Below are positions 3,762 through 62,306 of a stretch of 64,000 bases of DNA, in pieces. The stretch comes from Bacteroidota bacterium (GTDB lineage: Bacteria > Bacteroidota > Bacteroidia > UKL13-3): assembly GCA_027482225.1 (NCBI GenBank), contig JAIXWD010000014.1, positions 138,719 to 202,718 of the forward strand, read 5' to 3'. The position numbers and the translations under genes are program-made. Below the pieces are notes generated by a model that saw only the letters and a program-made list of their open reading frames with translations, was not told the origin of the DNA and did not search any database. Numbering within the stretch: the stretch's first letter is position 1; each line of letters begins with the position of its first letter.

Positions 3762-3769
3762 GTAAGCGA

Positions 3770-4672: not shown

Positions 4673-4691
4673 CGAATAAAATGAAAGTCAG

Positions 4692-4719
4692 CGAAAATAG
4701 GGAAAAGGTTGTTAAGCAA
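4692..4719 (-). promoter_or_regulatory. Promoter candidate for the gldA operon
   Basis: Read on the minus strand, TTG (4717-4719) is followed after exactly 17 bp by TATTTTCG (4692-4699). This matches the Bacteroidota TTG/TAnnTTTG promoter pattern with one change (C for T). The predicted transcript start would lie just before the gldA ATG at 4672. No other promoter-like box was seen between the terminator at 4727-4754 and gldA. Confidence 0.55.
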
Positions 4720-4726
4720 CACAATT

Positions 4727-4754
4727 AAAAAAGGCCTGCATTGCAGGCCTTTTT
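4727..4754 (-). terminator. Rho-independent terminator after the TIG-repeat gene
   Basis: A perfect inverted repeat, AGGCCTGCA/TGCAGGCCT, is flanked by A and T runs, giving a GC-rich hairpin with a T tail in both directions. It begins directly after the stop codon of the minus-strand gene at 4756-5988 and separates it from gldA. Confidence 0.85.
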
Positions 4755-4755
4755 G

Positions 4756-5988: not shown

Positions 5989-6009
5989 ATGTGTTGGTTT
6001 TGGTTAACA

Positions 6010-6017
6010 CAAAAATA
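6010..6017 (-). promoter_or_regulatory. Possible -7 box for the TIG-repeat gene
   Basis: On the minus strand this reads TATTTTTG, an exact TAnnTTTG box, 22 bp upstream of the ATG at 5988. I do not see a TTG at the usual distance upstream, so this is only half a promoter signal. Confidence 0.35.
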
Positions 6018-6036
6018 ATGTAAATAGATTTAAAAC

Positions 6037-25256: not shown

Positions 25257-25604
25257 ATATAACCGTTTAATAACGTTTACCGAACCCAATAGTAGCTTAG
25301 ATTTGTGTACAATAAAACAGTACAATTAAAAATGTGCTAAAAATTATTTTAAAAGTAAATTACACTAAACCAACACACAGCAAAAAAAATAAAGCTAATA
25401 TAAAATTTATGCTTAAAATATATATTGCTTAAAATTAGGTTACTATGATTTAAAGGTTATTGATAAAAACTACAACAACGATTGTAGGTAAAATCTATAT
25501 TTATTAAGGTTCGACTGTAAATCAGGTATAATAAACCAATTATAAAATAACACTTGTTTCTAAAAAAATTATTGTTTAAAACAATAGATAAAGAGATAAC
25601 AGAT

Positions 25605-34600: not shown

Positions 34601-37600
34601 TTCGAGTTTATACTACTTAAGAATATATGATGCAGCCACTGGCTCAAGCAATAATGGAGAATTTGCCATTTGCGTGAGTGAGGTGATATCGCCTCCAGCC
34701 AACGATAATCCTTCGGGTGCAATTGTGCTTACTACAAGTGGTACATGTACATCCACTTCATCAACCTTGCCTGCTACTTTATCGGCAACGGGTACAAATG
34801 GTATAACAACATGTTCAGCTGCAACTCCTGGTACGCCTGATGATGATATTTGGTATACATTTACAACCAATTCTATTCCCGGAACAACATATGCTATATC
34901 GGCTACAGGAGTGAGTACATACAATGCCGTATTGCAACTTTTTAGTGGCACTGCAAGTAGCCTTACAAGTGTGGATTGTGCGAATGCAACCGGAAATGGC
35001 GGAACTGAAACCATCAATGCTGGAGCATTGACAACCAATACAACTTACTTTTTCAGGGTATACCATTCAGGCTCAGGTGCTGCAAATGGCAATGTGTCTG
35101 TTTGTGTAGTTCATACAATACCAACATGTTTAACCTCTGTTTCAGCAAGTGTTGGTGATTATATTTGGCAAGGACAATCAACTAGTTTTACAACAGCAAA
35201 TAACTGGCTAATCTATGATGGTCCATCATCTTATTCAGTTGCCTCAACAGCACCTTCAGCAGTTAATATTTTTATTCCTTCTTCAACTTGCTTTGCAAAT
35301 CAACCAACATTAAGTAGTTCTCCATCTGCTGTAAATAATTTAACAATAAACAGCGGTGCTACTTTAAGCTTGGGTAATAATACCTTAACTGTTAATGGTA
35401 ACCTTACTTCAAACGGAACTATCAATATAGGTAACAGCACGTTAGTTTTTAGTGGTACAGCTGCTCAAAATGTTAGTATTAGTGAAACATTATTTAACCT
35501 AACATTAAACAACAGTAATGGTTTAATATTGGGTCAGAACTTAACAGTTTCTAATAATTTAAATCTAACAGCAGGCACCTTAAATATTGATACAAGAAGC
35601 TTAACTCTTAATGGAAGCATTAGCCGCACATCAGGAAATATTAATGCAAGCAACGCAACTGCTAATTTAACCTTTAGTGGGTCATCGGCTCAAAGCATTC
35701 CGGCTTCTACCTTTACAGGTAACATCAACAACTTAATATTAAATAATAGCAGCGGTTTAATCACAAATCAGAACCTAACCTTTGCAGGCACACTTACCCT
35801 AACTGCTGGAGTATTTGATGCAAATAATATGGTTACATTTAACAATAACGCATCATTAATCCATAATGGAGGAAGCATAATTAACTACAGTTTGCCAACA
35901 GATTTAAATAACTTCACGCCTATAACAGGAACCACAACGCTAAGCGGTAACTTAAGCTTAAGTGGCAACTTAAATATTGGAAGTAATATTTTAGACATTG
36001 GATCTAATACACTTACGGTTAATGGAGGTATTACCAGAACCACAGGTGCCATTAAAACCAATTTAGGTACTTTAATTTTAGGTGGCACCACGTCATCAAC
36101 CCTACACTTCGACCAAACAACTGATGGTGTTACCAATAAACTAAAAGATTTAACCATAAACAGAACAGGAGCTACAGTAACCTTAGGCAATAAATTACAA
36201 ATTGCAGATAACGGTACTGTAACGGTAACTGCAGGTACACTTGCTACAGGAGGCAACTTGTTGCTTACCTCAACACTCAGCGGTACAGGCCGAATTGCAG
36301 AATTAACTGTTGGTGCAAGTGTAACAGGTAACGTAGAAATACAAAGATATATGGTTGGAGGCGCAACTAGTCAGCGCGGATGGAGGTACATGAGTTCACC
36401 TGTTGCAAGTGCTACTTATGCGCAATTAATAGATGATATTTTTATTACCGGCCCTGGAGGTACTACCAATGGATTTGACATGGGAGGCACTAACTCATCT
36501 GTGATGTATTACGAAGAAAGTACAGCTAGGGGATGGAAAAGTATAAGCTCGCCAAACAATACTTGGACTGCAGGAAAAGGAGCCATTGTATTTTTTAGAG
36601 GCGACAGAACACAAACTACCTCGTTAACCAATACCTTAGTAGCACCAAATAGTTTTGCACTTGATTATTTGGGGAACATAAATTCAGGTAATTATACCGT
36701 AAACCTAGATTATGATAATACTGTTGGAATTCCAGATAACCAAGGATGGAATTTAATTGGCAATCCATATCCAAGCCAAATTGATTGGAATAATGTAAGT
36801 AAAACCATTGGTGTAAGTAGCCATTATTACTTAATCAATCCGAACACAAAAAATTACGTGAGTGCAAATACTGGTATTATAGCAGTGGGGCAAGGATTTT
36901 TTGTTCAAGTTAATGCAGGCTCACAATCGGTAACGTTTGAAGAGAATGATAAAACAAGTTCTACAGGAACGGCATATTTTAAAACGGCTGTCAATCCGTT
37001 AACTATTAAGATGAATATGGATAGCATTCAACATGATGTGGCCAACATCTATTTTGAAAACAATGCAAATAAAAATTATTTGTTTGTTGAAGACGCCATT
37101 AAATTAAAAAATTCGGTTTATAATTTGAGCATCATAACACCAAATAACTTTGAAGTTCAAAATAACCATGTGCCATTTTTAGGTAGCACCGGAACTGATA
37201 CCTTTGAGTTGAAAGTGACATCAACTATCAATTCAAGCTACAACTTATCGTTTACTAATTTTAACCAAATACCTTCAAACAAAGCAATTGTATTGGTTGA
37301 TAAATTAAACAACAGCATAACTAACTTAAGACTCACTCCAAACTACACATTTACGATAAACAACAGTATCAGCGCTAGTTTCGGTAAGAGATTTCTACTA
37401 ATAATTACTGATCAATTAAATGCATTACCAGTTAAATTAATTGCTTTTAGTGGAAATAACAGAGGCAAGCACAATGAGTTACTTTGGACAACCAGCAACG
37501 AAAAGAACATGGTTAGTTATGATGTACAACGTTCAACAGATGGTATCAATTTTGAAACCATTGGGCTTATTAAACCAAGTAATGTTAGCACCACCAGCAA

Positions 37601-37955: not shown

Positions 37956-38251
37956 ATTATAAAACACATTAACGCAAGTGAGAAACGATATGAAATAAAA
38001 CAAGGTAAATGTAAAAAATATATACCTAGCGGTGTACATTTAAAGATAAAATGTAACTTATTACAGTAAAAGTATCACTTTAATTCCAATTTCAAATGCT
38101 GAAAAAAGAAAAAAATATGGATATTTTTAATAAAAAAAGCCACTTATCATATAAATAAAGCTATATATACCTATTTTTTAATTCTTGTATTAAAATTATA
38201 TAAAATTAATAAACACATTAAAAAAAATTAATATGTTTGTGTCAAATAAAC
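37956..38251. other. 296-bp AT-rich spacer between two T9SS genes
   Basis: No gene is visible. TAAATGTA (38006-38013) and TACATTTA (38035-38042) form a perfect inverted repeat with a 21-bp spacer. TATGTTTG at 38232-38239 is an exact TAnnTTTG box just before the next start, but has no matching TTG upstream. No clear terminator follows the giant gene. Confidence 0.45.
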
Positions 38252-41053
38252 ATGACCATGCAAATACAATTTAAAAACCAAAAAATAGCACTTTTGTTAT
38301 GTTTTTTATTTCACATAATAGGCGTTAATGCATACGGTCAAATCTCTATAGTTACATTAGGGACTGCCAATACACAAAATTTTAACGGTTTAATCAATTC
38401 GGGGACTAACCAATCGCCATTATCAGGTTGGGAAATTGCTGAGCCTCCATCAGGCGATGATTTATATGATGCAGGTGATGGATCGGCAACTTCTTCGGGT
38501 ATTTACAGCTTTGGAACAGGTACAAATACAGATAGAGCATGGGGCTCATTAACAGCAAGTCTTTCAGAACCCATGATTATAGGTGTAAAATACACCAATA
38601 ATACACTACAAAATATATCAAGCATTGCCATACAATATACGGGTGAACAATGGCGATTAGGTAGTGTTGGACATAGCGATAAGCTTAATTTTGAATACAG
38701 TACCAATGCAACGAGTATAACCGACAATGGTGCTAATTGGATTCCAGTAAACAGTTTAGATTTTATATCTCCAACAACAACAGGTACTTCAGGAGCTTTA
38801 GACGGAAATGCTTTAGCAAACAGAACAACTTTATCAGCCAATATTGCAGTTAATGTTTTAGCTGGAACAGGATTTATTTTTATTAGATGGAGAGATCAAC
38901 ATCTTGGAGTAAATGACCATGCATTAGCCATTGACGACTTAAGTTTAACAGCATTCGCAAATATTACAACAGGAACTTATTCAGAGTTTATTGTAGATGG
39001 AACAATGACACTTGGTGGCGATATTAATATAAACGGCAGTACAACTTTTATAAATTCAAGTTCGAAAATAGACATCGGAGCCAATACACTAACCATATCA
39101 GGTGATGTTGTTGGTACACCATTATTTAAAGGGGGAGTAAACGCCAATTTAAATATTAGTGGAAGTGGTACAATTGGCACCATCAACTTCGATCAAACAG
39201 TGCCAGGAAGTACTAATCTGTTAAAAAATATGACCTTAAATAGATTAGGTGCAACGGTAACATTAGGTAGCGCATTAAATATTTCAGATTTAGATGGAAG
39301 CGTAAACTTAACATCAGGTTCTTTGGCTACAGCAGGAAATTTAACCCTATTATCATCATTTTCAGGTACAGCTAGAATTGGTACTATAACAAATGGCGTG
39401 TCTGACCTTAGCGGTAATGTTAACGCGCAAAGGCACATGCAAGGTACAGCGGTAGATTATAGAGGCTGGAGAACAATGGGGCCCATTACTAGTAATTTTG
39501 CGGTTAACCAATTAACAGATGACATCTTTGTTACAGGACCAGGTGGAGCGAGTAATGGTTTTGATGCAAGTGGTAGCAATTCATCGGTAATGTATTATGA
39601 AGAAGATTTTAACGTTATTGGGGGAAGAGGTTGGAAATCAATTGCAAATACAGCAGCAACTTTTAGTGCAGGCCAAGGTATGTTGGTATTTTTTAGAGGT
39701 GATAGAACACAAACGTCATCACTTACAAACACACTTATAGTGCCCAACAGCACAGTGATAGATGTTGTTGGACCAATTAATAAAGGTGATGTTTTGGTTA
39801 ATTTAAAGTACAATGATGATAGTAACATAGCAACTGAAGACGGATGGAATTTTGTTTCTAATCCATACCCAAGCCAAATAAATTGGGGTGGTGTAACCAA
39901 AGGCGTTTCTGTTGATAATAATGTTGCCATTCTAAATCCGCTTACTAATGGTTATGTAACATTAGGGCTAACCGACTTCATTCCTAGTCACCAAGGATTT
40001 TTTGTAAAAACCAATGCCACGTCTCAATCCATTACTTTTCTAGAAAGTGCTAAAGTAACCAACGGTACTACACCATATTTTAAAACACAGCAAAAACCTT
40101 TTGCTATAAAAATGTTTGAGGATAGCGTTAAGTATGATATTGCTCTTTTAAAATTTGAACCTGCTGCCGCAAAGAATTATGTATTTAAAGAAGATGCATT
40201 AAAAATGACCAATAGCAGAATAAATTTAGGTTTTGTAACCCCCAACAACAGAATAGTTCAAATAAATACCATACCTAATTTACCTACTAATAATACTGAT
40301 ACATTTATTATCAAAACCTCATCAAGTAAAAATGGTACACATTGGTTAACCTTTGAGGATAAAGCTATTTTACCAGCTAACAAAAGTGTAATTTTGGTTG
40401 ACGCATACAACAATAACATCATTGATGTAAAAACAACATCAACCTATGCTTTTAACATTGACAATACGTTGGCTGCAACATATGGTAATCGTTTTAAATT
40501 AATCATTACCGACCAATTCAATGCATTACCAGTAAAATTAACTTCATTTATTGGCGAGAATCAAGGTAAGTATAGCATACTAAGTTGGACGTCTGTAGCC
40601 GAGAAAAATCTGATTAACTATGAAGTTGAAAAAAGTATTGATGGAAAAACATTTGAAACCATTGGCTTAATTAAAGCAACTAATAGCAACACTAAAACAG
40701 ACTATTCTTTTTCTGATTATACTAATTCAGCTGCAAACATTATTTATTACCGTCTAAAAATTAATGAACAAAAAGGAATTGTTAATTACTCGCAAATAGT
40801 AGCTATTCAAAATAACAGTATAATTGAACCAGTTTTGAGTGTTTATCCTAATCCGGCTAATCAATTTATCAATATCAACTTGCCTGAAAATAATAACTTA
40901 AGGGAAGTGCTTTTTTATGATATTAATGGTAAGCTAATGATGACAAGCTCAAAGGCTAAAAATATTGATGTGGCTGAATTAAATGCGGGGGTGTATACCA
41001 TCCAAGTTAAAACAGACAAACTTGACCAAAGAATTAAATTTATTAAGCAGTAG
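38252..41053 (+). CDS. Exported T9SS-sorted protein, paralogue of the giant protein's C-terminal part
   Basis: About 933 residues with a signal peptide (hydrophobic core LLLCFLFHIIG, cleavage near AYGQ). The N-terminal third is a jelly-roll-like beta domain. It is followed by short repeats of the form 'DGTMTLGGDININGSTTF', then a region of about 360 residues that matches the giant protein upstream almost motif for motif (GWRTMGP / TGPGGASNGFD / SSVMYYEE / FFRGDRTQ / NPYPSQINW / ALPVKLTSF), and a T9SS signal (YPNPANQFINI ... GVYTIQVKT). ATG 38252 was chosen over the longer TTG start; ATG 38258 is equally possible. Probably a surface protein working with, or duplicated from, the upstream gene. 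Confidence 0.85.
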   Translation: MTMQIQFKNQKIALLLCFLFHIIGVNAYGQISIVTLGTANTQNFNGLINSGTNQSPLSGWEIAEPPSGDDLYDAGDGSATSSGIYSFGTGTNTDRAWGSLTASLSEPMIIGVKYTNNTLQNISSIAIQYTGEQWRLGSVGHSDKLNFEYSTNATSITDNGANWIPVNSLDFISPTTTGTSGALDGNALANRTTLSANIAVNVLAGTGFIFIRWRDQHLGVNDHALAIDDLSLTAFANITTGTYSEFIVDGTMTLGGDININGSTTFINSSSKIDIGANTLTISGDVVGTPLFKGGVNANLNISGSGTIGTINFDQTVPGSTNLLKNMTLNRLGATVTLGSALNISDLDGSVNLTSGSLATAGNLTLLSSFSGTARIGTITNGVSDLSGNVNAQRHMQGTAVDYRGWRTMGPITSNFAVNQLTDDIFVTGPGGASNGFDASGSNSSVMYYEEDFNVIGGRGWKSIANTAATFSAGQGMLVFFRGDRTQTSSLTNTLIVPNSTVIDVVGPINKGDVLVNLKYNDDSNIATEDGWNFVSNPYPSQINWGGVTKGVSVDNNVAILNPLTNGYVTLGLTDFIPSHQGFFVKTNATSQSITFLESAKVTNGTTPYFKTQQKPFAIKMFEDSVKYDIALLKFEPAAAKNYVFKEDALKMTNSRINLGFVTPNNRIVQINTIPNLPTNNTDTFIIKTSSSKNGTHWLTFEDKAILPANKSVILVDAYNNNIIDVKTTSTYAFNIDNTLAATYGNRFKLIITDQFNALPVKLTSFIGENQGKYSILSWTSVAEKNLINYEVEKSIDGKTFETIGLIKATNSNTKTDYSFSDYTNSAANIIYYRLKINEQKGIVNYSQIVAIQNNSIIEPVLSVYPNPANQFININLPENNNLREVLFYDINGKLMMTSSKAKNIDVAELNAGVYTIQVKTDKLDQRIKFIKQ

Positions 41054-52709: not shown

Positions 52710-54020
52710 TTAAAAATACCTTACAGGTCTTACCCTATAACTTTCAAATACAGCACAACCACAAACACCAACATTTGGGGCAAACATTGGAGCCAATGCA
52801 CCTGCAAAATTCTGCATAACACTTGAAGACCAATAACCTGTTGTTTGAGGACCAGAAGTATAAAAATTGCCTTTATTGTTACTGGCTAAGTTTGATTTTA
52901 ATGCTAACAAATCATCCCTTGAAGGCAAAAACCAATCGTTATAAACTCCATCTTTATAGTTTTTAGCTGCTTTAGCAGCGTTAAAGTTTGCATTAATAAT
53001 GATACCTACAGCCAAAATTGTATCTGTATTGTTTTTACCTTTACCTATTAAATTTGAAATATTTTGAAAAAATTGTGAATAAGCTCCTGGACCCCAATCG
53101 TATAATACAGGCAAATCGTTTGGTGCAGCAATAATACCATGTGTTTCACCAGCTACATAACCAATATCTCCCGGTTTAAAAATGTATCCTACAATACCTC
53201 CACCAAATGTATCGCCTAAAACCAAACTGAACTGAACGTTTAAATTTATACTGCAAGATTTACCCCCAATATTGATGGGGAAAGTAGCAACACCAGAACC
53301 GTTTGGAGTACCTGAAATTTGATACACCAAGGTATCTTGTCCAACCGAAAAATTCCCTGATGATAACGTTGCTGTTAAACCCGGAACACCTGTCGATGTT
53401 GTTACTTGTCCGCTATGCACTCCTCCATTACCTCCTGAGTATGGTATTTTTAATTTTACCCCATTTGCTGAAACGCCAGAAGAAAGTGAACCAACTTGCA
53501 TGGCAGCATTACAACTAAGTGTAGTAATTTTTCCGGGGCATATTCCTCCATTTGTCCAAATTGGTTTGCCATCGCACATTGTTAATACTTGCCCTTGTGT
53601 ACCAATTGATGAAATAGATTCGGCTGTTTTAGCATGCAACGCATAAGGCACGCTTAACAACTGACTGGTGCCAGCTATGGTATAATTGGTTCCACCAGTT
53701 GGGTCGGTTTCTGTTTTAATAAAAAAGGGGCCATTTGCCCAATCAATATTATTAAAAGTACCGTTTTGAGCGGTACCTCCACCAATTTCAATACTCACCA
53801 AACCATTTACATTTGTTGTTGGTGTATGGGTTTCGGTATAAACAGCTGAACCTGTGGTACCGCCTTGCAATATGCTAATACGAAATCCTACTATTTGGTT
53901 TGAAACCAAAACACCTGAAGCGTTTCTTACAACCGCTTGGTAACTTATTTTATTGGGCGATTGGCTAAATAGATTTAATGCAATAAATACTGCAGTAAAA
54001 AAGGTAAATACTTTTTTCAT
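52710..54020 (-). CDS. Exported protein with Bacteroidota N-terminal beta module and DUF1566 domain
   Basis: A 436-residue secreted protein. After the signal peptide (about 1-19), residues 20-133 form a module common in Bacteroidota surface proteins (ISYQAVVRNASG ... GLVSIEIGGGT ... GTSQLLSVPYALHAKTAE). The middle is beta-rich with a few cysteines. The last 150 residues are a DUF1566-type domain (GGGIVGYIF ... GIIAAPNDLP ... DWFLPSRDDLLALKSN ... YWSSS ... YRVRPVRYF). It lacks a T9SS signal. It is the last gene of the four-gene operon that starts at 58177 and its ATG is 4 bp after the preceding stop. DUF1566 occurs in adhesin-like and lectin-like proteins; its ligand here is unknown. Confidence 0.82.
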   Translation of the reverse strand: MKKVFTFFTAVFIALNLFSQSPNKISYQAVVRNASGVLVSNQIVGFRISILQGGTTGSAVYTETHTPTTNVNGLVSIEIGGGTAQNGTFNNIDWANGPFFIKTETDPTGGTNYTIAGTSQLLSVPYALHAKTAESISSIGTQGQVLTMCDGKPIWTNGGICPGKITTLSCNAAMQVGSLSSGVSANGVKLKIPYSGGNGGVHSGQVTTSTGVPGLTATLSSGNFSVGQDTLVYQISGTPNGSGVATFPINIGGKSCSINLNVQFSLVLGDTFGGGIVGYIFKPGDIGYVAGETHGIIAAPNDLPVLYDWGPGAYSQFFQNISNLIGKGKNNTDTILAVGIIINANFNAAKAAKNYKDGVYNDWFLPSRDDLLALKSNLASNNKGNFYTSGPQTTGYWSSSVMQNFAGALAPMFAPNVGVCGCAVFESYRVRPVRYF

Positions 54021-54024
54021 GGAA

Positions 54025-54510
54025 CTACTTTTTTATAATTTTAAACGATTGCACTTGTTGGTTTTGCTGATTATAAACATGCAAAAAATACGTTGCGGAT
54101 GCCAATAACGTGGTGTTAACTTGGGTTTGCTGGGTAGCTATATTTCCCAGCAATAAAAGCTTGCCTTGCATATCTATTAGTTGGTAGGTTAACTTTTCAT
54201 TTTTAAACTCGTTAACCACTAATGTTAAATCGTTGGTTGTTGGATTTGGATAAGCAACCAATGAAATCTTAGATGCAGATTCGTTTAAACCAACGTTTTT
54301 AATATCATAGGTTTGTTGAACACCCATAGAGATACTTACAGAGGTATCTTTTATTGTGGTGTAAACCACTTGCCCAATACTAAATGCAACACTCCCTCCA
54401 CTACCAGTGGCACTGCCACCTGCAGCGTTAATAGAATTTTGTGCTGTGCATACATTTGTTGTAATCTGTATGGCAGAAATAATTAGTGCTATCCGAAAGA
54501 TGTAACTCAT
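54025..54510 (-). CDS. Small exported protein with T9SS type A sorting domain
   Basis: A 161-residue protein with a signal peptide (about 1-23), a short Gly/Ser-rich motif (INAAGGSATGSGGSVAFSIGQ) followed by VYTT and GVQQTYDI, and a T9SS type A signal (YPNPTTNDLTLVV ... ATYFLHVYN ... SFKIIKK). Proteins of this size and layout are frequent in Bacteroidota next to DUF1566 proteins. Since its two DUF1566 neighbours lack a sorting domain, it could be their surface anchor or secretion partner (inference). Start at 54510 gives the signal peptide. Confidence 0.78.
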   Translation of the reverse strand: MSYIFRIALIISAIQITTNVCTAQNSINAAGGSATGSGGSVAFSIGQVVYTTIKDTSVSISMGVQQTYDIKNVGLNESASKISLVAYPNPTTNDLTLVVNEFKNEKLTYQLIDMQGKLLLLGNIATQQTQVNTTLLASATYFLHVYNQQNQQVQSFKIIKK

Positions 54511-54546
54511 ATAAATGATATAAACGATTTGATAAATAGTAAAATA

Positions 54547-56790
54547 TTAATATGCCCTTACGGCTCTTACGCGCAATTGACTGCCTCTCCAGGTAGTTCC
54601 GCTACCTAAACCGTAATTAACAGAAATATCAGGAAAAATTGCATTCCATGCATCAAAGCCAGCTGCAGAACTACTCCAATAATTTTGTTCTGGTACAAAA
54701 CCTCCTAAATTATTTAAATGCAAATTAATGTACATTAAATACAACTCATCTATAGATGGTAAAAACCAATCATTTTGCCCTCCCAAAACAAGGTTATCAC
54801 ACAGTTTTGCGGCATTATTTTTGGGTTGATTACAACCCGCAACAATTAAGCTTGTGTTGGTTTCACCGCTGCCTACTATTTTTAATGTGCCAGAAATTTG
54901 ATTAGTGGTTGAATCGCAACCCCATTGCATACCTGTACTTTGGTCACTTGGTGCGGCCATAAGGTAACGCCAACCACCTACATTATTCCCTTTATCAAAA
55001 AACACCTTACCGCCCCCTGGGCCTGTTTGACCAACAGGCAATGTGGTGAAGGAATCTATAATACCACCTATAGTACCTATACCAGTTATGTCAACGTAAG
55101 CATAATAATAATAAACTGTATTAGGTTTAAGTAATTCGTCATTAAGGCTTAAACTTGTTGTTTTACTAAAACTTCCATTACCAAAACTTCCGGTATGGTT
55201 TAAAGTTGTGTTTAATTGATCACGTGAAATACCAATTTTTATCCCCCTTGATAAAATTGAATTGGTATCTATATTTGTAATATTTCCGCCAAAAGTAGCC
55301 GAGTTTGAAGTAATACCTGTAACCGGGCTCGTTGTAACAACATTTAAAGTAGTAAAAGTAACTTGATTGCCATAGGCAATCGTATTGTTTTCTGCAATAG
55401 CAAATGAGCGAACAAAGTATTGTCTGTTTTGAGCTAATAATAACAGTGAGGGGATAATAATCGAATCACTATTGAATGACCCAACACCGTCTCCTGCTAT
55501 AAATCCATATAAAATTGGTACGTTATCATTCATTCCATTAAACCAACTGTTGGGTGTAAAATTAATATTATTCAAAGAAAGAGAAGGATTAGCAACGGAT
55601 GATAGAACAAATCCACGTGCAATTAGTTTATTTCCATTTGTATTGGTAACGGAACCGCTGAATTTAGCAAAAAAAGGTGTAATATTGGTTACCGCTTGCG
55701 TGGTTACTGTTGGTGGAGTTAGGTTTAACGTGGTAAACGTAACTTGGTTACCATACTTTGTAATGTTATTTTCAGTAATGGCATAAGCACGGGCATAATA
55801 GGTGGTACTGGGTTGTAAAAAATAATTATCACTGGCAGACATGGTAGTTGTTATGTTGAATAAACCGGTGTCTTTACCTATGTTAATTGTACGCGAAGGC
55901 AAATAAATAGTAGGATTGGGTGTTATAGAATACACTATACCTCTTTCTATAACAACACTGCCATTCGCATTGGTAACCCTACCACTGTATGTAGCACTAT
56001 TTGAAGTAATTCCTGAAACTGGATTGGTTACTATGCTTGGTATAGGCAAGTTTGAACTTGAGCTACTAGCTATGGGTAATTTCACAAAACCTCCTTTAGA
56101 AAGAAATAGGGTATCATTACTGATGGTTAAGATCTGCAATTCGTTTGTTGCACTGGTATCTGCATCATAATGATTCGGTAATTTCACATGACCTCCGTTA
56201 GAAAGAAATAAAGTATCTTTACTGATGGTTAATGTCTGCAATTCGTTTGTTGCACTGGTATCTGCATCATAATGATTCGGTAATTTCACATGACCTCCGT
56301 TAGAAAGAAATAAGGTATCTTTACTAATGGTCAATGTCTGCAATTCGTTTGTTGCGCTCGTATCTGCATCATAATGATTAAGCACATTAGAGGCCGTTTT
56401 AGCATGCATGGCATAAGGCACACTTAACAACTGACTGGTTCCAGTAATGGTATAGTTAGCTCCACCCGATGGGTCAATTTCTGTTTTAACAAAATACAGG
56501 TCACCAGCCCAATTAATAGTAGAAAAATTACCTACTTGAGATGAACCACCGCCTATTTCAAAACTAATTAAACCATTTGCATTGGTCTTAGGTTGGTGCG
56601 TTTCAGAAAACACAACAGCTCCTGCCGATGAACCTTTTAAAATGCTCATTTTAACTCCCACAACTTGGTCTATTACCAAAGCATTGTTACTATTTCTAAC
56701 AACAGCTTGATAACTAATTCTGTTTGGCGCTTGAGCAAATGCTACTGTTACGATAAATGTAAATAGCACCGTACATAAAATCTTTTTCAT
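54547..56790 (-). CDS. Exported multi-domain DUF1566 protein with three identical-type 34-residue repeats
   Basis: A 747-residue secreted protein. The signal peptide is about 1-20. Residues 21-133 form the same SYQAVVRN ... LLSVPYAMHAKTA module as in the 436-residue protein of this operon. Three near-identical 34-residue repeats follow (139-172, 173-206, 207-240; HYDADTSATNE ... DTLFLSNGG). Then come three FN3-like domains (about 250-600, each with P.V.T..VT.IT...A..SG.VTN and T.YYARAYA-type strands) and a DUF1566 domain (about 605-747; GPGGGKVFFDKG, NDWFLPSIDELYLMY, YWSSS, RVRAVRAY). The 34-residue repeats resemble those of tail-fibre-like or collagen-like surface proteins. Probably an adhesin; the ligand is unknown. 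Confidence 0.82.
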   Translation of the reverse strand: MKKILCTVLFTFIVTVAFAQAPNRISYQAVVRNSNNALVIDQVVGVKMSILKGSSAGAVVFSETHQPKTNANGLISFEIGGGSSQVGNFSTINWAGDLYFVKTEIDPSGGANYTITGTSQLLSVPYAMHAKTASNVLNHYDADTSATNELQTLTISKDTLFLSNGGHVKLPNHYDADTSATNELQTLTISKDTLFLSNGGHVKLPNHYDADTSATNELQILTISNDTLFLSKGGFVKLPIASSSSSNLPIPSIVTNPVSGITSNSATYSGRVTNANGSVVIERGIVYSITPNPTIYLPSRTINIGKDTGLFNITTTMSASDNYFLQPSTTYYARAYAITENNITKYGNQVTFTTLNLTPPTVTTQAVTNITPFFAKFSGSVTNTNGNKLIARGFVLSSVANPSLSLNNINFTPNSWFNGMNDNVPILYGFIAGDGVGSFNSDSIIIPSLLLLAQNRQYFVRSFAIAENNTIAYGNQVTFTTLNVVTTSPVTGITSNSATFGGNITNIDTNSILSRGIKIGISRDQLNTTLNHTGSFGNGSFSKTTSLSLNDELLKPNTVYYYYAYVDITGIGTIGGIIDSFTTLPVGQTGPGGGKVFFDKGNNVGGWRYLMAAPSDQSTGMQWGCDSTTNQISGTLKIVGSGETNTSLIVAGCNQPKNNAAKLCDNLVLGGQNDWFLPSIDELYLMYINLHLNNLGGFVPEQNYWSSSAAGFDAWNAIFPDISVNYGLGSGTTWRGSQLRVRAVRAY
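56075..56380 (-). repeat. Three tandem 102-bp coding repeats
   Basis: Three consecutive 102-bp units begin at 56075, 56177 and 56279. The latter two are nearly identical and the first has diverged at about a dozen positions. Each encodes one 34-residue repeat in the 747-residue exported protein, so the array can gain or lose units without a frameshift. Confidence 0.92.
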
Positions 56791-56806
56791 TGATTATTTT
56801 TTTAAA

Positions 56807-58177
56807 TTATTGCAATAAAATCTTCCTAGTTGTAACCACGTTGCCTTGAGTATCTAATACTCGTACAAAATAAATTCCTTTACCTGTCCAAGTACTTAAG
56901 TCAATGTTAAATTGAGCTTGAGTAATGGCACTGCTAAATACTTGCTGACCTAGACTGTTTTCTATTTTTATGCTGTAACCTGCCATAACCGTATAGTTAC
57001 CATTATCAATGGTAATGCGATCTTTCGCAGGGTTAGGATAAATCAATAAGGTATTAGTTGTGTTTGGCGTTGGCAAGCCAACGGTAGTTTTAATAATTAA
57101 TGTGTCTGTTACTGTGGTTAAAATGGTATCAGTAACTTTAGTTAAACAAGTATCAGCAACTTTAAGGTATACCACCTTTGACGTATCTGCACAACCAGTA
57201 GAATTTACTAATGCGCGAAAAGCCTGGTTGTGATTAGATACTGATACATTGTTAACCCCTAAGGTATTTGTATTAACCCCATTATAATAGCTATTAGCAG
57301 GCACATTCATCCATCCAATGTTTAATGGATTGGTCTGCCATTGATAAGTACTACCTGTTTTACTTGTAGTAGTAAATTGAGCATTTAAACCTAGACCAAC
57401 GTTTGCATTTGTTGGCTGATTTGTGATGATGCTATCACCGCATCCACGATATAAATTTGTAATTTCTTGTGCGGTAAGGGCTCGGTTCCAAACTCCAATT
57501 TCATCCATTTGACCATTGAAATAGCTATAAGTGGCATTTGAGGACCAAGGCTTTCCAAATGAAAGATTTGATGAATTTGAACCTATTGATGAATATTGAT
57601 TATATGTCATAAATAAAACACCATTTAAGTATGTTTTTGTAGTGGTCAAATCTGTAGTAAAACACAAATTATTCCAAGCATTAAGTTGTATTTGAGCAAA
57701 TGGTATATTACTTCCTTGCGAGGATTGATTAGCGGAAACACCATATCTATAATTAAATGTGTTTACTGAAGTATAATTTGATAGAAATATTTGAAAATAG
57801 GAATTAGCTTGACCATTAGACGATGTCTTACTTATAATGTAATGTTCTTTACCATCATTAGGAAAAGTAGTTATTTTGAACCAAAAAGAAATTGTTTGAC
57901 CATTAGGATAATTAGATATTGATGAAGATGACGGCACATCAATGTAATTTGAAACACCATCAAAAGTATAGGCTTTATTTGGCTGTCCAAATCTATCATT
58001 AACTAAAGTTGCACCATTCACCAATCCATTATTCCCATTTCCACTCACATCATTTGCATTGCCATTAAATGGCCAAAAACCAACTAAACCATTTGTTGGC
58101 ACATAACTTGGTACTTGAGCCATTGTTGCATTGGCAAATCCAATAATTGCAATTAAAGCATAAAGAACTTTTTTCAT
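56807..58177 (-). CDS. LamG-domain exported protein with T9SS sorting domain
   Basis: A 456-residue secreted protein, first of a four-gene operon. It has a signal peptide (about 1-20), a concanavalin/LamG-type domain (about 28-245; GLVGFWPFNGNANDVSGNGN, AYTFDGVSNYIDVP, TISFWFK, WNRALTAQEI), an Ig-like segment (about 255-340; YQWQTNPLNIGWMNVP), a Thr-rich linker, and a T9SS signal (IYPNPAKDRITID ... GKGIYFVRVLD). LamG domains bind sugars or proteins, so this is a likely surface adhesin. A degraded copy of the HTH-gene palindrome lies about 105 bp upstream. Confidence 0.88.
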   Translation of the reverse strand: MKKVLYALIAIIGFANATMAQVPSYVPTNGLVGFWPFNGNANDVSGNGNNGLVNGATLVNDRFGQPNKAYTFDGVSNYIDVPSSSSISNYPNGQTISFWFKITTFPNDGKEHYIISKTSSNGQANSYFQIFLSNYTSVNTFNYRYGVSANQSSQGSNIPFAQIQLNAWNNLCFTTDLTTTKTYLNGVLFMTYNQYSSIGSNSSNLSFGKPWSSNATYSYFNGQMDEIGVWNRALTAQEITNLYRGCGDSIITNQPTNANVGLGLNAQFTTTSKTGSTYQWQTNPLNIGWMNVPANSYYNGVNTNTLGVNNVSVSNHNQAFRALVNSTGCADTSKVVYLKVADTCLTKVTDTILTTVTDTLIIKTTVGLPTPNTTNTLLIYPNPAKDRITIDNGNYTVMAGYSIKIENSLGQQVFSSAITQAQFNIDLSTWTGKGIYFVRVLDTQGNVVTTRKILLQ

Positions 58178-58331: not shown

Positions 58332-58571
58332 TTACATCATGGTGTTAATTTTATCATTCCATTTAAAATCCAACACCCCAACTCCATCAAAAAAATACCT
58401 CATTTTATTTCTATCATATTTAATGGGTGCATGCAATTCATCTTTCATAAACTTGATGATATGGAATAACATACGCTCTGAAATCCCCAGTTTATCTGCC
58501 ATATAACGAGGTGTGCCAGATCGACCTGAGGCAATCAAGTCATTTACTTTAATTATTTTTTTAATATCCAT
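58332..58571 (-). CDS. Small HTH transcriptional regulator
   Basis: A 79-residue protein with a winged-helix/HTH-like pattern: IKVNDLIASGRSGTPRYMADKLGISERMLFHII (helix, then the KLGIS turn and recognition helix) and a basic, aromatic C-terminal wing (YDRNKMRYFF). It belongs to a type of short DNA-binding protein common in Bacteroidota. ATG 58571 was chosen; a GTG two codons upstream (58577) is possible. A perfect 10-bp-arm palindrome lies 8 bp before the start, which suggests autoregulation. It is divergent from the sigma factor gene and upstream of, and co-oriented with, the LamG operon. Confidence 0.72.
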   Translation of the reverse strand: MDIKKIIKVNDLIASGRSGTPRYMADKLGISERMLFHIIKFMKDELHAPIKYDRNKMRYFFDGVGVLDFKWNDKINTMM

Positions 58572-58579
58572 ACCCACTC

Positions 58580-58602
58580 ATACTGAAACAAGGTTTCAGT
58601 AT
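58580..58602. promoter_or_regulatory. Perfect palindrome ATACTGAAAC-AAG-GTTTCAGTAT, putative operator
   Basis: Two 10-bp arms (58580-58589 and 58593-58602) with a 3-bp spacer lie directly upstream of the HTH regulator start. The half-site CTGAAAC recurs at 58651-58657, inside the promoter spacer of the divergent sigma factor gene. This arrangement fits a dimeric repressor acting on both genes. A transcribed hairpin is the alternative, but no T run follows on either strand. Confidence 0.65.
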
Positions 58603-58646
58603 TAAAATTTACATTTATGACGATCAGTGCGATTCCTTTTCTCCTA

Positions 58647-58676
58647 TTGCCTGAAACTATTTATTGATATACTTTG
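58647..58676 (+). promoter_or_regulatory. Promoter candidate for the sigma factor operon
   Basis: TTG (58647-58649) is followed after 18 bp by TATACTTTG (58668-58676), one base longer than the TAnnTTTG consensus. It ends 12 bp before the ATG of the sigma gene. A CTGAAAC half-site (58651-58657) lies between the two boxes. Confidence 0.45.
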
Positions 58677-58688
58677 TGATGGAAATAC

Positions 58689-59255
58689 ATGGCATTAGAA
58701 AAAGTTAAACAGTTAAACGAAACAAGTCTTTGGGAGTTATATGCAGCTGGAAATAACAATGCATTAGCTACCTTATATACTTTGCATCAGAAACACCTTT
58801 TGCTTATTGCCTATAAATACCTCAGATGCGAAACAAACGCAGAGGATATAGTTGCCGATTTATTTGAAAAATTACTGGCCATGAATACTGCCGAACGTAA
58901 AACGATTACAGCCGTGCTCATCCATAATCCACTAGCATACCTCACCGTTGCCATTAAAAACAAAAGCATTGATTATTTAAAAATTAAACACAACAGGGAG
59001 AATATTATAATTAATATTCGTTATTGGTTTACATCAACAGAAAAAAATACAGCTTACAAACAGTTTACGCATGATGCATTGGAGTTAATGCTCACGAGGC
59101 TCGAACCACGTGAACGTGAAATTATGCAATTGCATTTGGCAGGTTATCGTAATGAAGAAATAGCCAATAAACTAAACCTAAGCTACAATAATGTAAAAAA
59201 TAACATCTATGAAGCTCGGGTAAAACTGAAACGCATTTGGAAAACTATCATGTAA
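58689..59255 (+). CDS. ECF-like RNA polymerase sigma-70 family factor
   Basis: A 188-residue sigma factor with only regions 2 and 4. Region 2 (about 18-92) contains LYTLHQKHLLLIAYKYLRCETNAEDIVADLFEKLL and the YLTVAIKNKSIDYL segment. Region 4 (about 132-185) contains LEPREREIMQLHLAGYRNEEIA with the HTH that binds the -35 element. It follows a TTG-18-TATACTTTG promoter candidate and is followed after 12 bp by a membrane-anchored protein that is the likely anti-sigma partner. The regulon is unknown. Confidence 0.88.
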   Translation: MALEKVKQLNETSLWELYAAGNNNALATLYTLHQKHLLLIAYKYLRCETNAEDIVADLFEKLLAMNTAERKTITAVLIHNPLAYLTVAIKNKSIDYLKIKHNRENIIINIRYWFTSTEKNTAYKQFTHDALELMLTRLEPREREIMQLHLAGYRNEEIANKLNLSYNNVKNNIYEARVKLKRIWKTIM

Positions 59256-59267
59256 TTATTTTGAATA

Positions 59268-60002
59268 ATGAATCATCTTATAAATAATACTACCATTACA
59301 GAAATAATGGCCCTTGAAAGTACTTGCTCACAAGAAGAGAAGCAAGCAATGATGAGGAGGATTGAGCTACACAAAGATGAGCATGAATACTTGGATGGTG
59401 CTTGGTTATTTTTACAAGATCACAATAATGATTTTACTGCATTAAAAAAGTTTTTAGCATCAACTACAGTATTAAATTATACCGAAACAAATAAACATGA
59501 TCGAACGCTAAAATATGCGGGTGCAGCTGCTATTTTATTGGTTCTTATTTTAGGAAAATTATCCTACAATAAATGGATTTATCAAACCACTTTAATAGAA
59601 TTCGTATTTGCAGATAACAGTATTGCTGTATTCGCAACAAGTACAAATAATGCATTACAAAAAGATGCCCTAATAAATGCTTATAAAACAGAAAATATAA
59701 AACAGGGTATCGAAATTTTTGAAAAATTAGATTCAAATAACCACACGGATACATTAAGTTATATAGCGGGACTACTCTACTTAAACAATAAAGAATATTC
59801 TAAATCTATAGCACAGTTTAAGCGTATTCATACAACTAGTATGTACCGAAACAAAGCCATGTATTTTATGTCTATTGATTTAATTTATTTAAATAAAAAA
59901 GAAGAAGCAAAAGTCATGTTAAGAAGCATTCAAACTGAAGATGATGAATACCTTTCTGCCAAAACAACTAGTTTACTGAACGAAGTACTTATTTGGAAAT
60001 AA
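59268..60002 (+). CDS. Single-pass membrane protein with TPR-like outer domain, possible anti-sigma factor
   Basis: A 244-residue protein: a cytoplasmic N-terminal part of about 80 residues (mostly helical, containing SQEEKQAMMRRIELHKDEHEY-like anti-sigma features), one transmembrane helix (about 83-97, AGAAAILLVLILG), and an outer domain of about 145 residues with TPR-like helices (SYIAGLLYLNNKEYSKSIAQF, AMYFMSIDLIYLNKKEEAKV). Topology and operon position behind the sigma gene suggest an anti-sigma factor that senses the envelope. No zinc-binding anti-sigma motif is visible. Its last 30 bp overlap the end of the convergent CHAT protease gene. Confidence 0.7.
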   Translation: MNHLINNTTITEIMALESTCSQEEKQAMMRRIELHKDEHEYLDGAWLFLQDHNNDFTALKKFLASTTVLNYTETNKHDRTLKYAGAAAILLVLILGKLSYNKWIYQTTLIEFVFADNSIAVFATSTNNALQKDALINAYKTENIKQGIEIFEKLDSNNHTDTLSYIAGLLYLNNKEYSKSIAQFKRIHTTSMYRNKAMYFMSIDLIYLNKKEEAKVMLRSIQTEDDEYLSAKTTSLLNEVLIWK

Positions 60003-62306
60003 GCAGTAGGATACTATCAATATAAACAAAAGCGTAGCACCTAATAAATAAAAAATAACATACGGATTTTGCGCAGATAATACCAATGGACTTAAATTCC
60101 CTTCAACAACCAAAGGAGCCCAAAATATAGGGCTATACTCCTCATCTAAACGATTAATAGACCAATACTTTTTTTTCGCTTCATAAAGGGCGTCATCCTT
60201 ATGCATTCCCTCATTTAAAAACTGGTAAAAATAGGTGAGTATCTCAGCCGAACTTTTATCATCTAATTTGCTTAATCCGTATACACAAGATTTAGCTCCT
60301 GCCCGAAAAAAATAATACGGAAAGTTAAGATTCGCCTCAGATACATAATCATCTCCTCGTCCGGTCTCACATAAAGCAAGTACCACCAAATTAGCATTTA
60401 ATTTTGTTCTTGTAATTTCTAACACATTTAGTTTCTCTAATTTACCTTGATGATTGGTAAGTAGCAAATGATTTTGAGAAATATCACTGTGACTAGCCAC
60501 ATAACTATGCCCAGCCAAATGAATAACACTTGCTTGAGGAGCATTAAATTGGTAATAACTAACACTAGATTGATTACCTAAATAACAATTGAAATAAAAT
60601 TGTTTTAAAGATGAAGTTTGGTTGGATAAAAAAGGGAGCTCTGTTACTGCAGCATATTGATAGTTTGGACAAAATGCTATAGGTGCGTTTGTACTATTTA
60701 CTTGTTGGGCTAAATACTCTTTTAGCGAGTATGATAGCTGGTAGTTAAATTTATACTTCTTAAATAAATATGGCTGACTTTTATAAGTATGATGAATGGT
60801 ATCTGTTATTAAAGACTCGAAATTGATATTACCTGTTTTAACGGATGGGATAATGGTTACATCGTTAATCTGAGGGTGTAAAAAGCTTGCAATAGGCTTG
60901 AAAATTAACTGATAAAGCTTGAAAGAATTATTCTTATAGAAAGAAAACGATGACTTATCATATTCAAATAGATTCATTTTACTTTTAAAATCGAAAAAAA
61001 CATCATCTCCTAAATCAATTAAATGAAAGGTATCTTTTAAAAAAAGCAGGGCATAATTACCACTAGCATAATTATTAAAATATTGAACAATGGATTGATT
61101 ATTTGTAAGTGCTGACTGAACTTGTTTGATACTTTTAATAGAAAAATTAGGTCTTGATGAGATTTTAGTAAAGCTTAATAATGAATTTAATTTACTCCGT
61201 TCGGTATAGTAAAAAAACGAATCTGCATCACCTCTATTGCCACTTATTTTATACAAGTAAAAGTAGTTTGTAGCCAATAAATTGATAGGAGAATTGCTGT
61301 AGATGAATTTTAAAACACCTATATCTTTATTGGTGTTTTTATTAACCCATAATTCCCACTCAGGTATTAATGAGCGCAACAGTTTATTCTCCTTCATTTT
61401 TATCGCTTTCATTTCATGATTACTAAAAACATGTGATAAAATTGAAGCGCGTCTATTTAATGCAAACAAGTAATCAGTGAGGTTAGATAATGAATGCTCC
61501 ATGCTTTTACTGTATAAACTCACCGATTTATTATAATCAGCATAAGCCAACTTATAATCCCCCACCATACTATTGGCTAGACCTTTTAAGCAGTTAATCA
61601 TGCCACGTTCACCATAATTTGATGGAAAATTATTCTCTAAAATATCAATAGCTTGATTATATGCATGCATAGCAGCCTTGTAATAAGGGAATTTCTGTTT
61701 TACATCCAATCGCTTATTATTAAGAAAATCCTGGTTGTAATTGGCAAAACTTCTGTGCAATTCAACCATCCTAAAAATACTAATGCCAGGTTGGTTATAA
61801 AATAGTTGATAAGCTGTATCAAAGTAATATTTTACCACGCCACGCGCATTATTTCGCTCCGCAGATGCCTTTGCTAAAAAAAGCGAATAGGCCTCGATAC
61901 GATTCATTTCAGGTTTATAAACATGATACAAACTCAATGCAGAATCAGCATATGGAACTGCCTTGTGTGCCATGGCATTAAAATGAAAATACTTGGAATA
62001 GTTTCGGTATACCTCAGCCTGATAGGCGTTTGATTTAACTAAACGCACTTTGAGCAGTATTTGCGCTGAGTCTGTATAATATTTAAAGTACTCTATGTTT
62101 TTTGTTTGATAGTTAATCTCTGCCAATAACATCAATTTTTTATACCTAATTGAAGGGATATTTTCGTCATTGATAACATATATTGTTTCTAGTGCCCTAT
62201 CATATTTGCCATCAAAAATATATTGCTCACATATTTTAATTGAATTTGCAAAAAGTGATGTCAGGTTAATTAGAAAAACAAATGTCAAAAATATTATTTT
62301 ACACAT
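59973..62306 (-). CDS. Exported TPR-CHAT caspase-like protease homologue
   Basis: A 777-residue protein with a signal peptide (about 1-20, ending LFA), a long helical TPR region (about 25-390; ALETIYV, AVPYADSALSLYH, AYNQAIDILENN, KLAYADYNKSVSLYSKS), a CHAT domain (about 500-740) and a C-terminal transmembrane helix (about 749-770) with a short tail. The CHAT catalytic pair is present: H600 in HLAGHSY and C646 in LALCETGRG. A YFFRAGAKSCVYGL strand and DDALYEAKKKYW helix follow, as in the family. It is predicted to be anchored with the protease facing the periplasm. It is convergent with, and overlaps, the possible anti-sigma gene. Substrates are unknown. Confidence 0.85.
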   Translation of the reverse strand: MCKIIFLTFVFLINLTSLFANSIKICEQYIFDGKYDRALETIYVINDENIPSIRYKKLMLLAEINYQTKNIEYFKYYTDSAQILLKVRLVKSNAYQAEVYRNYSKYFHFNAMAHKAVPYADSALSLYHVYKPEMNRIEAYSLFLAKASAERNNARGVVKYYFDTAYQLFYNQPGISIFRMVELHRSFANYNQDFLNNKRLDVKQKFPYYKAAMHAYNQAIDILENNFPSNYGERGMINCLKGLANSMVGDYKLAYADYNKSVSLYSKSMEHSLSNLTDYLFALNRRASILSHVFSNHEMKAIKMKENKLLRSLIPEWELWVNKNTNKDIGVLKFIYSNSPINLLATNYFYLYKISGNRGDADSFFYYTERSKLNSLLSFTKISSRPNFSIKSIKQVQSALTNNQSIVQYFNNYASGNYALLFLKDTFHLIDLGDDVFFDFKSKMNLFEYDKSSFSFYKNNSFKLYQLIFKPIASFLHPQINDVTIIPSVKTGNINFESLITDTIHHTYKSQPYLFKKYKFNYQLSYSLKEYLAQQVNSTNAPIAFCPNYQYAAVTELPFLSNQTSSLKQFYFNCYLGNQSSVSYYQFNAPQASVIHLAGHSYVASHSDISQNHLLLTNHQGKLEKLNVLEITRTKLNANLVVLALCETGRGDDYVSEANLNFPYYFFRAGAKSCVYGLSKLDDKSSAEILTYFYQFLNEGMHKDDALYEAKKKYWSINRLDEEYSPIFWAPLVVEGNLSPLVLSAQNPYVIFYLLGATLLFILIVSYCLFPNKYFVQ

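What the first reader, a model, noticed from the sequence alone, without database searches (positions are those of the whole stretch)
58332..62306. Compact HTH / sigma / membrane-TPR / TPR-CHAT locus: possible protease-controlled envelope sigma module
Seen: an ECF-like sigma gene, a single-pass membrane protein 12 bp behind it with an outer TPR-like domain, and a convergent gene (30-bp overlap) for an exported, membrane-anchored TPR-CHAT protein that keeps H600 and C646. Known: in type III-E CRISPR systems the TPR-CHAT protease Csx29 cleaves Csx30, which releases an inhibited sigma factor. Inference: here a periplasmic CHAT protease cuts the outer TPR domain of the anti-sigma-like protein and frees the sigma factor, a CRISPR-independent membrane version of the same logic.
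Basis: partly seen in the sequence, partly recalled or inferred. Interest (0 to 1): 0.72.

Follow-up and report, generated by a model that had tools for sequence, protein, structure and literature searches.

The report
Envelope sigma-switch with caspase-like protease
A freshwater bacterium carries a small gene set, found repeatedly across its phylum, in which a membrane-anchored caspase/separase-like protein sits beside a gene-switching sigma factor and that factor's probable membrane inhibitor, so it probably senses something at the cell envelope and frees the sigma factor; how it does so is untested.

Summary
The window holds an ECF sigma factor, a single-pass membrane protein with an outer TPR domain 12 bp behind it, and a convergent exported TPR-CHAT protein with a C-terminal anchor (30-bp overlap). 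H600 and C646 are invariant in all 28 relatives aligned. The same genome has a second copy of the module. Nearly every CHAT locus in the genus has the same layout.

In an unbiased class sample, 20 of 34 C-terminally anchored CHAT genes but 4 of 48 others have a sigma/membrane-TPR pair within 3 kb (p = 1e-6). In a phylum sample searched with the membrane protein alone, 12 of 14 hits lay within about 7 kb of a CHAT gene. The HTH gene is also conserved in one subtype, with a palindrome at its start.

The CHAT model matches Csx29 and separase, and also DdvA, a Myxococcus transmembrane anti-sigma factor with TPR-CHAT in the same chain. The module therefore looks like a split, Bacteroidota-wide counterpart of DdvA. 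Cleavage of the anti-sigma-like protein by the CHAT protein is the most likely mechanism (about 50%) but is not shown. I call it a new variant of a known kind.

The parts
58332..58577 (-). Small HTH DNA-binding protein (79-81 aa; ATG at 58571), divergent from the sigma gene
   Evidence: Orthologues in two families, found at module loci: G004, G005 (same family), G026, G136, G188, G211 (family f3). Only weak Pfam hits.
58580..58602 (.). Perfect palindrome ATACTGAAAC-aag-GTTTCAGTAT, 8 bp upstream of the HTH start: probable HTH operator
   Evidence: Perfect 8-bp or longer arms of the ACTGAAA/TTTCAGT palindrome in five of the seven HTH loci; similar but imperfect in L107 and L227. Only site in the genome within 2 mismatches.
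58609..58643 (+). Second conserved block between HTH and sigma (invariant ACG at 58620-58622, then 15 nt, then TnTnnC): possible sigma promoter, untested
   Evidence: Alignment of seven loci from two families
58689..59255 (+). ECF-type sigma factor, 188 aa (regions 2 and 4 only)
   Evidence: Sigma70_r2, Sigma70_r4_2; (TIGR02985, TIGR02937); fold matches CnrH, SigK, SigE, SigW, AlgU sigma chains
59268..60002 (+). Single-pass membrane protein, 244 aa: N-terminal four-helix cytoplasmic domain (putative sigma-binding), TM helix about 77-112, short juxtamembrane linker, outer TPR domain about 128-244
   Evidence: Model pLDDT 84.8; TPR fold Z 15.6 over 118 residues; TPR families hit in up to 28 of 51 relatives
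59973..62306 (-). Exported TPR-CHAT protein, 777 aa: signal-like N-terminus, TPR array, CHAT domain 463-736 with H600 and C646, C-terminal TM anchor; 30-bp convergent overlap with the membrane-TPR gene
   Evidence: PF12770 E=4.8e-28; model pLDDT 81.8, pTM 0.78; Csx29 Z 30, separase Z 26, DdvA Z 20.6; dyad invariant in 28 relatives

Best explanation
This is an envelope-sensing ECF sigma module. The sigma factor is held inactive by the cytoplasmic N-terminal domain of the single-pass membrane protein encoded right behind it (a probable anti-sigma factor). The outer TPR domain of that protein faces the periplasm, where the membrane-anchored TPR-CHAT protein, a separase/Csx29-like cysteine protease, also lies. 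When a still unknown periplasmic signal acts, the CHAT protein cuts the anti-sigma-like protein on the periplasmic side, most likely in the exposed linker between TM helix and TPR. The rest is then removed by general proteases (the genome has one RseP) and the sigma factor is freed. In the window's subtype the small HTH protein binds a palindrome at its own start and probably represses itself. Shown here: the gene set, its conservation, the TPR and CHAT folds, the invariant His-Cys dyad. Inferred: topology, sigma binding, cleavage, signal, HTH autoregulation.
For: Second module in the same genome. Same layout at nearly all same-genus CHAT loci. In an unbiased class sample 20/34 anchored CHAT genes against 4/48 others have the pair, p=1e-6. 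Blind search with the membrane protein: 12/14 hits within about 7 kb of a CHAT gene, 5 convergent within 200 bp of the CHAT domain. Trees of the three proteins are congruent (Mantel r 0.60-0.76, p=2e-4; within one genome with 8 modules, sigma/TM r=0.48 p=0.02 and TM/CHAT r=0.38 p=0.04). H600 and C646 invariant in 28 relatives and aligned with the catalytic positions of Craspase TPR-CHAT. CHAT fold: Csx29 Z 30, separase Z 26, DdvA Z 20.6 over 580 residues. Where the C-terminal anchor is missing (L031, L037) an N-terminal lipobox-like cysteine replaces it. RseP present. Precedents: Csx29 cleaves Csx30 and relieves CASP-sigma (PMC10028731); DdvA is a transmembrane anti-sigma with TPR-CHAT (PDB 8rot; PMC12288465 ref 287).
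Against: No cleavage, binding or expression data. The sigma-membrane protein model has pTM 0.48 and gives no interface score, so sigma binding is unsupported by structure. The N-terminal domain hits no known anti-sigma family in Pfam. 14 of 34 anchored CHAT genes have no pair within 3 kb. In G025 paralogues the sigma and CHAT trees are not congruent. No complex of CHAT and the outer TPR domain was modelled.
Confidence: 0.5

Rival explanations
1. The CHAT protein controls the anti-sigma-like protein without cutting it: TPR-TPR contact in the periplasm holds or releases the membrane protein, and the dyad is kept for another reason (for example self-processing).
For: Both partners carry TPR domains on the same side of the membrane. 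TM and CHAT trees are the most congruent pair, r=0.76. DdvA carries the TPR-CHAT domain inside the anti-sigma itself, where a structural or autoprocessing role is possible (PDB 8rot).
Against: Absolute conservation of His and Cys across many families is hard to explain for a purely structural role.
Confidence: 0.2
2. The CHAT protein is the output, not the trigger: the sigma factor, controlled by the TPR anti-sigma-like sensor, drives expression of a periplasmic CHAT effector (protein turnover, defence or self-damage).
For: The CHAT gene is on the opposite strand, not in the sigma operon, as a regulated target could be. In large genomes many CHAT genes stand alone. Caspase-like proteases are often effectors (own knowledge).
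Against: Convergent, 3'-overlapping layout is kept across the genus and recurs in other families and in another class, which fits partner genes better than one regulon member among many. In some loci (L164, L191, L197) the order is sigma > TM > CHAT on one strand.
Confidence: 0.18
3. The membrane protein is not an anti-sigma factor but an activator, scaffold or sensor of another kind; the sigma factor is controlled by its own expression.
For: No Pfam match of the N-terminal domain to an anti-sigma family. Many Bacteroidota ECF factors are known to be controlled in unusual ways (own knowledge).
Against: ECF gene followed at once by a single-pass protein with a small helical cytoplasmic domain is the standard sigma/anti-sigma layout; the predicted domain has four helices before the TM segment; sigma and TM trees are congruent, also among paralogues of one genome.
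Confidence: 0.1
4. Chance neighbourhood of an abundant sigma/anti-sigma pair with an abundant CHAT gene.
For: CHAT genes are common in large Bacteroidota genomes, and so are ECF genes (own knowledge).
Against: Fisher p=1e-6, blind test 12/14, identical layout in most same-genus genomes, tree congruence.
Confidence: 0.02

Closest known systems
DdvS-DdvA of Myxococcus xanthus (transmembrane anti-sigma factor DdvA, PDB 8rot and 8rw5; Bernal-Bernal et al. 2024, cited in PMC12288465)
   Same: ECF sigma plus transmembrane anti-sigma with a TPR-CHAT fold; our CHAT model aligns with DdvA residues 397-991 over 580 residues, Z 20.6, Foldseek E 6.5e-12; His and Cys positions align.
   Different: In DdvA the whole thing is one chain. 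Here the anti-sigma-like protein has its own short TPR and the TPR-CHAT is a separate, membrane-anchored protein. DdvA controls a CBASS-CRISPR island; no defence genes were seen next to this module. The DdvA paper was not held here, so details beyond the PDB title and the review are from memory.
Type III-E CRISPR protease system Cas7-11/Csx29/Csx30/CASP-sigma (Craspase; PMC10028731)
   Same: TPR-CHAT protease, ECF sigma factor and a sigma partner protein in one locus; CHAT model closest to Csx29 chains (Z about 30); catalytic His and Cys align.
   Different: No Cas7-11, no CRISPR genes found near; partner is a membrane TPR protein, not soluble Csx30; CHAT is exported and anchored, so the trigger cannot be RNA binding by Cas7-11.
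CalpL/CalpT/CalpS (type III CRISPR Lon protease; PMC11417357)
   Same: Protease + anti-sigma + ECF sigma triad.
   Different: Lon protease, cytoplasmic, cA4-activated; unrelated protease fold.
DegS-RseA-RpoE and RsiW-type regulated proteolysis (own knowledge; cited in PMC10028731)
   Same: Periplasmic protease cutting a single-pass anti-sigma, then RseP.
   Different: Site-1 protease there is a serine protease or PrsW, not a caspase-like CHAT protein.
EACC2-caspase neighbourhoods with ECF sigma and DUF1822 TPR protein (PMC8195603)
   Same: Caspase-like domain gene next to ECF sigma and a TPR protein.
   Different: Different architecture (EACC2 + caspase + variable domain) and TPR family; no membrane-TPR anti-sigma described there.
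Dma anti-sigma factors of Bacteroides (PMC13088901)
   Same: Bacteroidota-specific transmembrane anti-sigma next to an ECF sigma.
   Different: Outer part is a tether and beta-barrel, no TPR, no CHAT.

Membership tests
CHAT peptidase-like family (PF12770) | Score above the curated cut-off | tested here: met
   98.9 bits against cut-off 24
CHAT peptidase-like family (PF12770) | His-Cys dyad | tested here: met
   H600 and C646 invariant in 28 relatives; aligned to Craspase TPR-CHAT His/Cys
CHAT peptidase-like family (PF12770) | Proteolytic activity | not testable with these tools
   No biochemical data
ECF sigma factor | Regions 2 and 4 only, about 160-200 aa | tested here: met
   TIGR02937 superfamily cut-off passed
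Transmembrane anti-sigma factor | Encoded right behind an ECF sigma gene, single TM helix | tested here: met
Transmembrane anti-sigma factor | Cytoplasmic sigma-binding helical domain | tested here: inconclusive
   Four helices predicted, no Pfam anti-sigma hit, pTM 0.48 and no interface score
Transmembrane anti-sigma factor | Binds and inhibits its sigma factor | not testable with these tools
   Needs two-hybrid or pull-down
DdvA-type anti-sigma (single chain with TPR-CHAT) | TPR-CHAT fold in the extracytoplasmic part | tested here: met
   Z 20.6 over 580 residues to 8rot, but in a separate protein
DdvA-type anti-sigma (single chain with TPR-CHAT) | Anti-sigma domain, TM and TPR-CHAT in one polypeptide | tested here: not met
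   Two separate convergent genes
DdvA-type anti-sigma (single chain with TPR-CHAT) | Controls a CBASS/CRISPR defence island | not testable with these tools
   Regulon unknown; no defence genes adjacent
Type III-E CRISPR CASP system (Csx29/Csx30/CASP-sigma) | Cas7-11 effector and CRISPR genes in the locus | tested here: not met
   PADLOC scans of the module and of ten nearby proteins show no Cas7-11 or other Cas effector
Type III-E CRISPR CASP system (Csx29/Csx30/CASP-sigma) | Cytoplasmic TPR-CHAT protease | tested here: not met
   Signal-like N-terminus and C-terminal TM; N-terminal lipobox-like cysteine in the L031 and L037 relatives
Type III-E CRISPR CASP system (Csx29/Csx30/CASP-sigma) | TPR-CHAT fold and dyad of Csx29 | tested here: met
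   Z about 30; His/Cys aligned
Type III-E CRISPR CASP system (Csx29/Csx30/CASP-sigma) | Csx30 homologue as sigma inhibitor | not tested
   Csx30 was not compared; the partner here is a membrane TPR protein

The most novel reading that the evidence does not exclude
Bacteroidota carry a phylum-wide family of split envelope sigma switches in which a membrane-anchored, catalytically intact separase/Csx29-like TPR-CHAT protein acts in trans as the site-1 protease of a TPR-bearing anti-sigma factor. Together with DdvA and Csx29-Csx30-CASP-sigma it would show that pairing TPR-CHAT proteases with ECF sigma control is an old, general signalling design from which the CRISPR version was recruited.
Probability: 0.35. 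Interest if true: 0.8.

Novelty: new variant of a known kind. Interest (0 to 1): 0.63.

Why it matters
Caspase/separase-like CHAT proteases with a known job in bacteria are few, and those known were mostly found beside CRISPR systems. Here they appear as a regular partner of ECF sigma factors in the envelope of many Bacteroidota, in one genome about eight times, with an intact active site and a repeatable gene layout. That gives a testable function to many 'CHAT domain-containing protein' genes, a possible new class of anti-sigma proteases, and a way to ask where the CRISPR-linked Csx29-Csx30-sigma module came from. I found no paper in the held library that describes the set.

Tried and rejected
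Chance neighbourhood: rejected. CRISPR type III-E membership: rejected, no Cas effector genes near. Single-sequence search for relatives in genome contigs found none; an alignment of the second-module type found seven MAG contigs of the same kind. A plain phmmer search of the CHAT protein against PDB found nothing meaningful; a profile was needed. A first mixed alignment of sigma and membrane proteins was misaligned for distant rows and replaced. The sigma-membrane protein model was made from the window's own DNA read through the two stop codons between the genes, as a stand-in for a complex; pTM 0.48, so I draw no interface from it. The DdvA papers PMC11506125 and PMC6061681 are not held. A shared sigma promoter upstream of the CHAT gene was looked for by eye and not established. 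No search for a CHAT/TPR complex was possible because the genes lie on opposite strands and only single chains can be modelled here.
Full report
WHAT IS THERE. The sigma gene (58689-59255 +) has regions 2 and 4 and nothing else, so it is ECF type. The gene 12 nt behind it (59268-60002 +) codes for a 244-aa protein with about 75 residues before one TM helix and about 120 residues after it. Its outer part has no Pfam hit of its own, but it models as TPR (Z 15.6, rmsd 2.0, 118 residues) and relatives hit TPR families (28 of 51 for TPR_19). The convergent gene (59973-62306 -) codes for a 777-aa TPR-CHAT protein (PF12770 E=4.8e-28) with a signal-like N-terminus and a C-terminal TM segment. The two 3' ends overlap by 30 bp.

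CONSERVATION IN THE GENUS. The same genome (G000, 2.72 Mb, 99.9% complete) has two CHAT genes. The second sits in the same layout: sigma +, membrane-TPR +, CHAT -, with overlapping 3' ends. The same-genus genomes with CHAT genes have one to three each. All ten of those fetched stand convergent to the membrane-TPR gene, with 12-30 bp of overlap. Nine have the sigma gene in front (split into two frames in L035); in L033 no sigma was recognised. Two CHAT proteins (L031, L037) lack the C-terminal TM but carry an N-terminal lipobox-like cysteine. I read this as a second way to keep the protein at a membrane (inference).

CONSERVATION BEYOND THE GENUS. From 296 genomes of the class I fetched about 80 CHAT loci chosen without regard to neighbours. 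Of CHAT genes with a C-terminal TM, 20 of 34 have an ECF sigma plus a downstream TM protein within 3 kb; of those without, 4 of 48 (Fisher p=1e-6). Orientation varies: 12 convergent, 6 co-directional with sigma first, 6 divergent. A limit: the sigma model was trained on module sigmas and iterated, so distant ECF factors may be missed, although the same model was used for both groups. For a blind test I searched 61 genomes drawn over the phylum with the membrane-protein model only, then located CHAT genes in the genomes that rang and in six that did not. Of 14 membrane-protein hits outside the window's genome, 12 lie within about 7 kb of a CHAT domain. Five of these are convergent within 200 bp (G381:C22, G387:C14, G366:C2, G378:C2, G127:C1). 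Two in G156 do not lie near one. The six genomes without the membrane protein had no CHAT. Several of these genomes belong to family f84, outside the window's class, so the association is old. Related genomes are not independent trials, but even a handful of independent events at about 1% chance each leaves chance out.

CO-EVOLUTION. Distances on the sigma, membrane-protein and CHAT trees agree over 39 modules (Mantel r: sigma/TM 0.69, sigma/CHAT 0.60, TM/CHAT 0.76; p=2e-4). Among eight modules of one genome (G025), where the species tree is held constant, sigma/TM (r=0.48, p=0.02) and TM/CHAT (r=0.38, p=0.04) agree but sigma/CHAT does not (r=0.11). This fits a chain sigma - membrane protein - CHAT, with the membrane protein in the middle.

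THE CHAT PROTEIN. In an alignment of 28 module CHAT proteins the invariant columns are H600, C646, G651, W729 and G736. A profile of the domain matches Craspase TPR-CHAT chains, with the histidine and cysteine aligned to ...LCHGEA... and ...LGACET.... For Csx29 the catalytic residues H615/C658 were shown by mutation (PMC10028731). The model (pLDDT 81.8, pTM 0.78) is closest to Csx29 (Z 30.5, 528 aligned, 7y9x), then separase (Z about 26) and, with 580 residues aligned at Z 20.6 and Foldseek E 6.5e-12, the transmembrane anti-sigma factor DdvA (8rot). Gingipains follow at Z 18.5. In DdvA too the His and Cys positions are present by sequence alignment.

WHY DdvA MATTERS. DdvA is a transmembrane anti-sigma factor whose single chain includes a TPR-CHAT domain (PDB 8rot). 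[quoted passage not shown] an older paper states that DdvS acts when DdvA is inactivated and that the signal is unknown, PMC4374960). I could not read the DdvA structure paper. From memory, it proposes autoproteolysis in trans followed by RseP. A fused natural version of what is split here is strong evidence that the Bacteroidota membrane-TPR protein and the TPR-CHAT protein belong to one pathway, and that this pathway is sigma control.

THE MEMBRANE PROTEIN AND SIGMA. The gene layout and the small helical domain before the TM are what a transmembrane anti-sigma factor looks like. The model of sigma plus membrane protein was made from the window's DNA read through the two stops between the genes, with other modules as alignment. 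It gives four helices (fusion residues 201-257), a loose linker and the TM helix, at pLDDT 84.8 but pTM 0.48. No interface measure is given, so sigma binding remains an inference. In most of the genus and family f3 proteins, a short motif of the type [DE]xx[LF]P[VI][YFL][LM] sits in the juxtamembrane linker between TM and TPR (alignment; in the window the matching stretch is 'ADNSIAVFA', without the proline). It is a candidate for the cut site or for CHAT recognition (inference only).

THE HTH GENE. The 79-aa HTH protein is conserved at module loci of G004, G005 (same family) and G026, G136, G188, G211 (family f3), always divergent from sigma. Between its start and the sigma gene lies a palindrome: window ATACTGAAACaagGTTTCAGTAT, L035/L108 ACTGAAATcacATTTCAGT, L228/L229 ACTGAAAAgttTTTTCAGT. 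Positions in both arms change together. It is the only such site in the genome within two mismatches and lies roughly 8-23 bp before the HTH start. An autoregulatory operator is the simplest reading. A second conserved block follows towards sigma (ACG, 15 nt, TnTnnC). It could be the sigma factor's own promoter, but this was not tested.

MECHANISM AND CONFIDENCE. I hold that the three genes form one functional unit at about 0.95 and that the membrane protein is an anti-sigma factor at about 0.85. That CHAT cuts it to free the sigma factor I hold at about 0.5. The rest is shared between non-proteolytic control, CHAT as output, and other roles. The genome has one RseP-family protease for a second step. 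The signal is unknown. No defence genes lie next to the module, so I do not claim a defence role.

NOVELTY. Searches of the held papers found the CRISPR systems, DdvA in passing, the EACC2-caspase neighbourhoods and Dma anti-sigma factors, but no description of this set. The library lacks most subscription papers. The principle (TPR-CHAT with ECF sigma control) is known twice, so this is a new variant: split, membrane-anchored, with an intact dyad, and widespread in Bacteroidota.

Noticed in passing
L049 (G000:C7:450000-460000), 3564-7206: Second sigma/membrane-TPR/CHAT module in the same genome, without the HTH gene; its orthologues lie in several Bacteroidia MAGs (L240-L246).
   Followed up: yes
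window 58580-58602 and 58609-58643: Conserved palindrome at the HTH start, and a second conserved block (ACG-N15-TnTnnC) before the sigma gene that may be an ECF promoter.
   Followed up: partly
G025 loci L050-L070, L101-L106: One 7.2-Mb genome of another family has 29 CHAT matches, of which about eight lie near a sigma/membrane-TPR pair; further pairs of the same type stand without a CHAT gene near.
   Followed up: partly
L031 and L037 (G002, G005): CHAT proteins that lack the C-terminal TM but have an N-terminal lipobox-like cysteine, so the anchor seems to have been swapped.
   Followed up: partly
window 25554-37955 and 38237-41053 (+): A 4133-aa and a 938-aa protein with type IX secretion sorting tails and no other Pfam domain.
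   Followed up: no
window 54547-56790 (-): Protein with three near-identical repeats of NHYDADTSATNELQ.LTIS.DTLFLS, next to further secreted proteins in a four-gene run (52710-58177).
   Followed up: no
G037, L048 and G288, L158: CHAT proteins of 1400-1600 aa without C-terminal TM and without a sigma pair: a different CHAT type in the same class.
   Followed up: no
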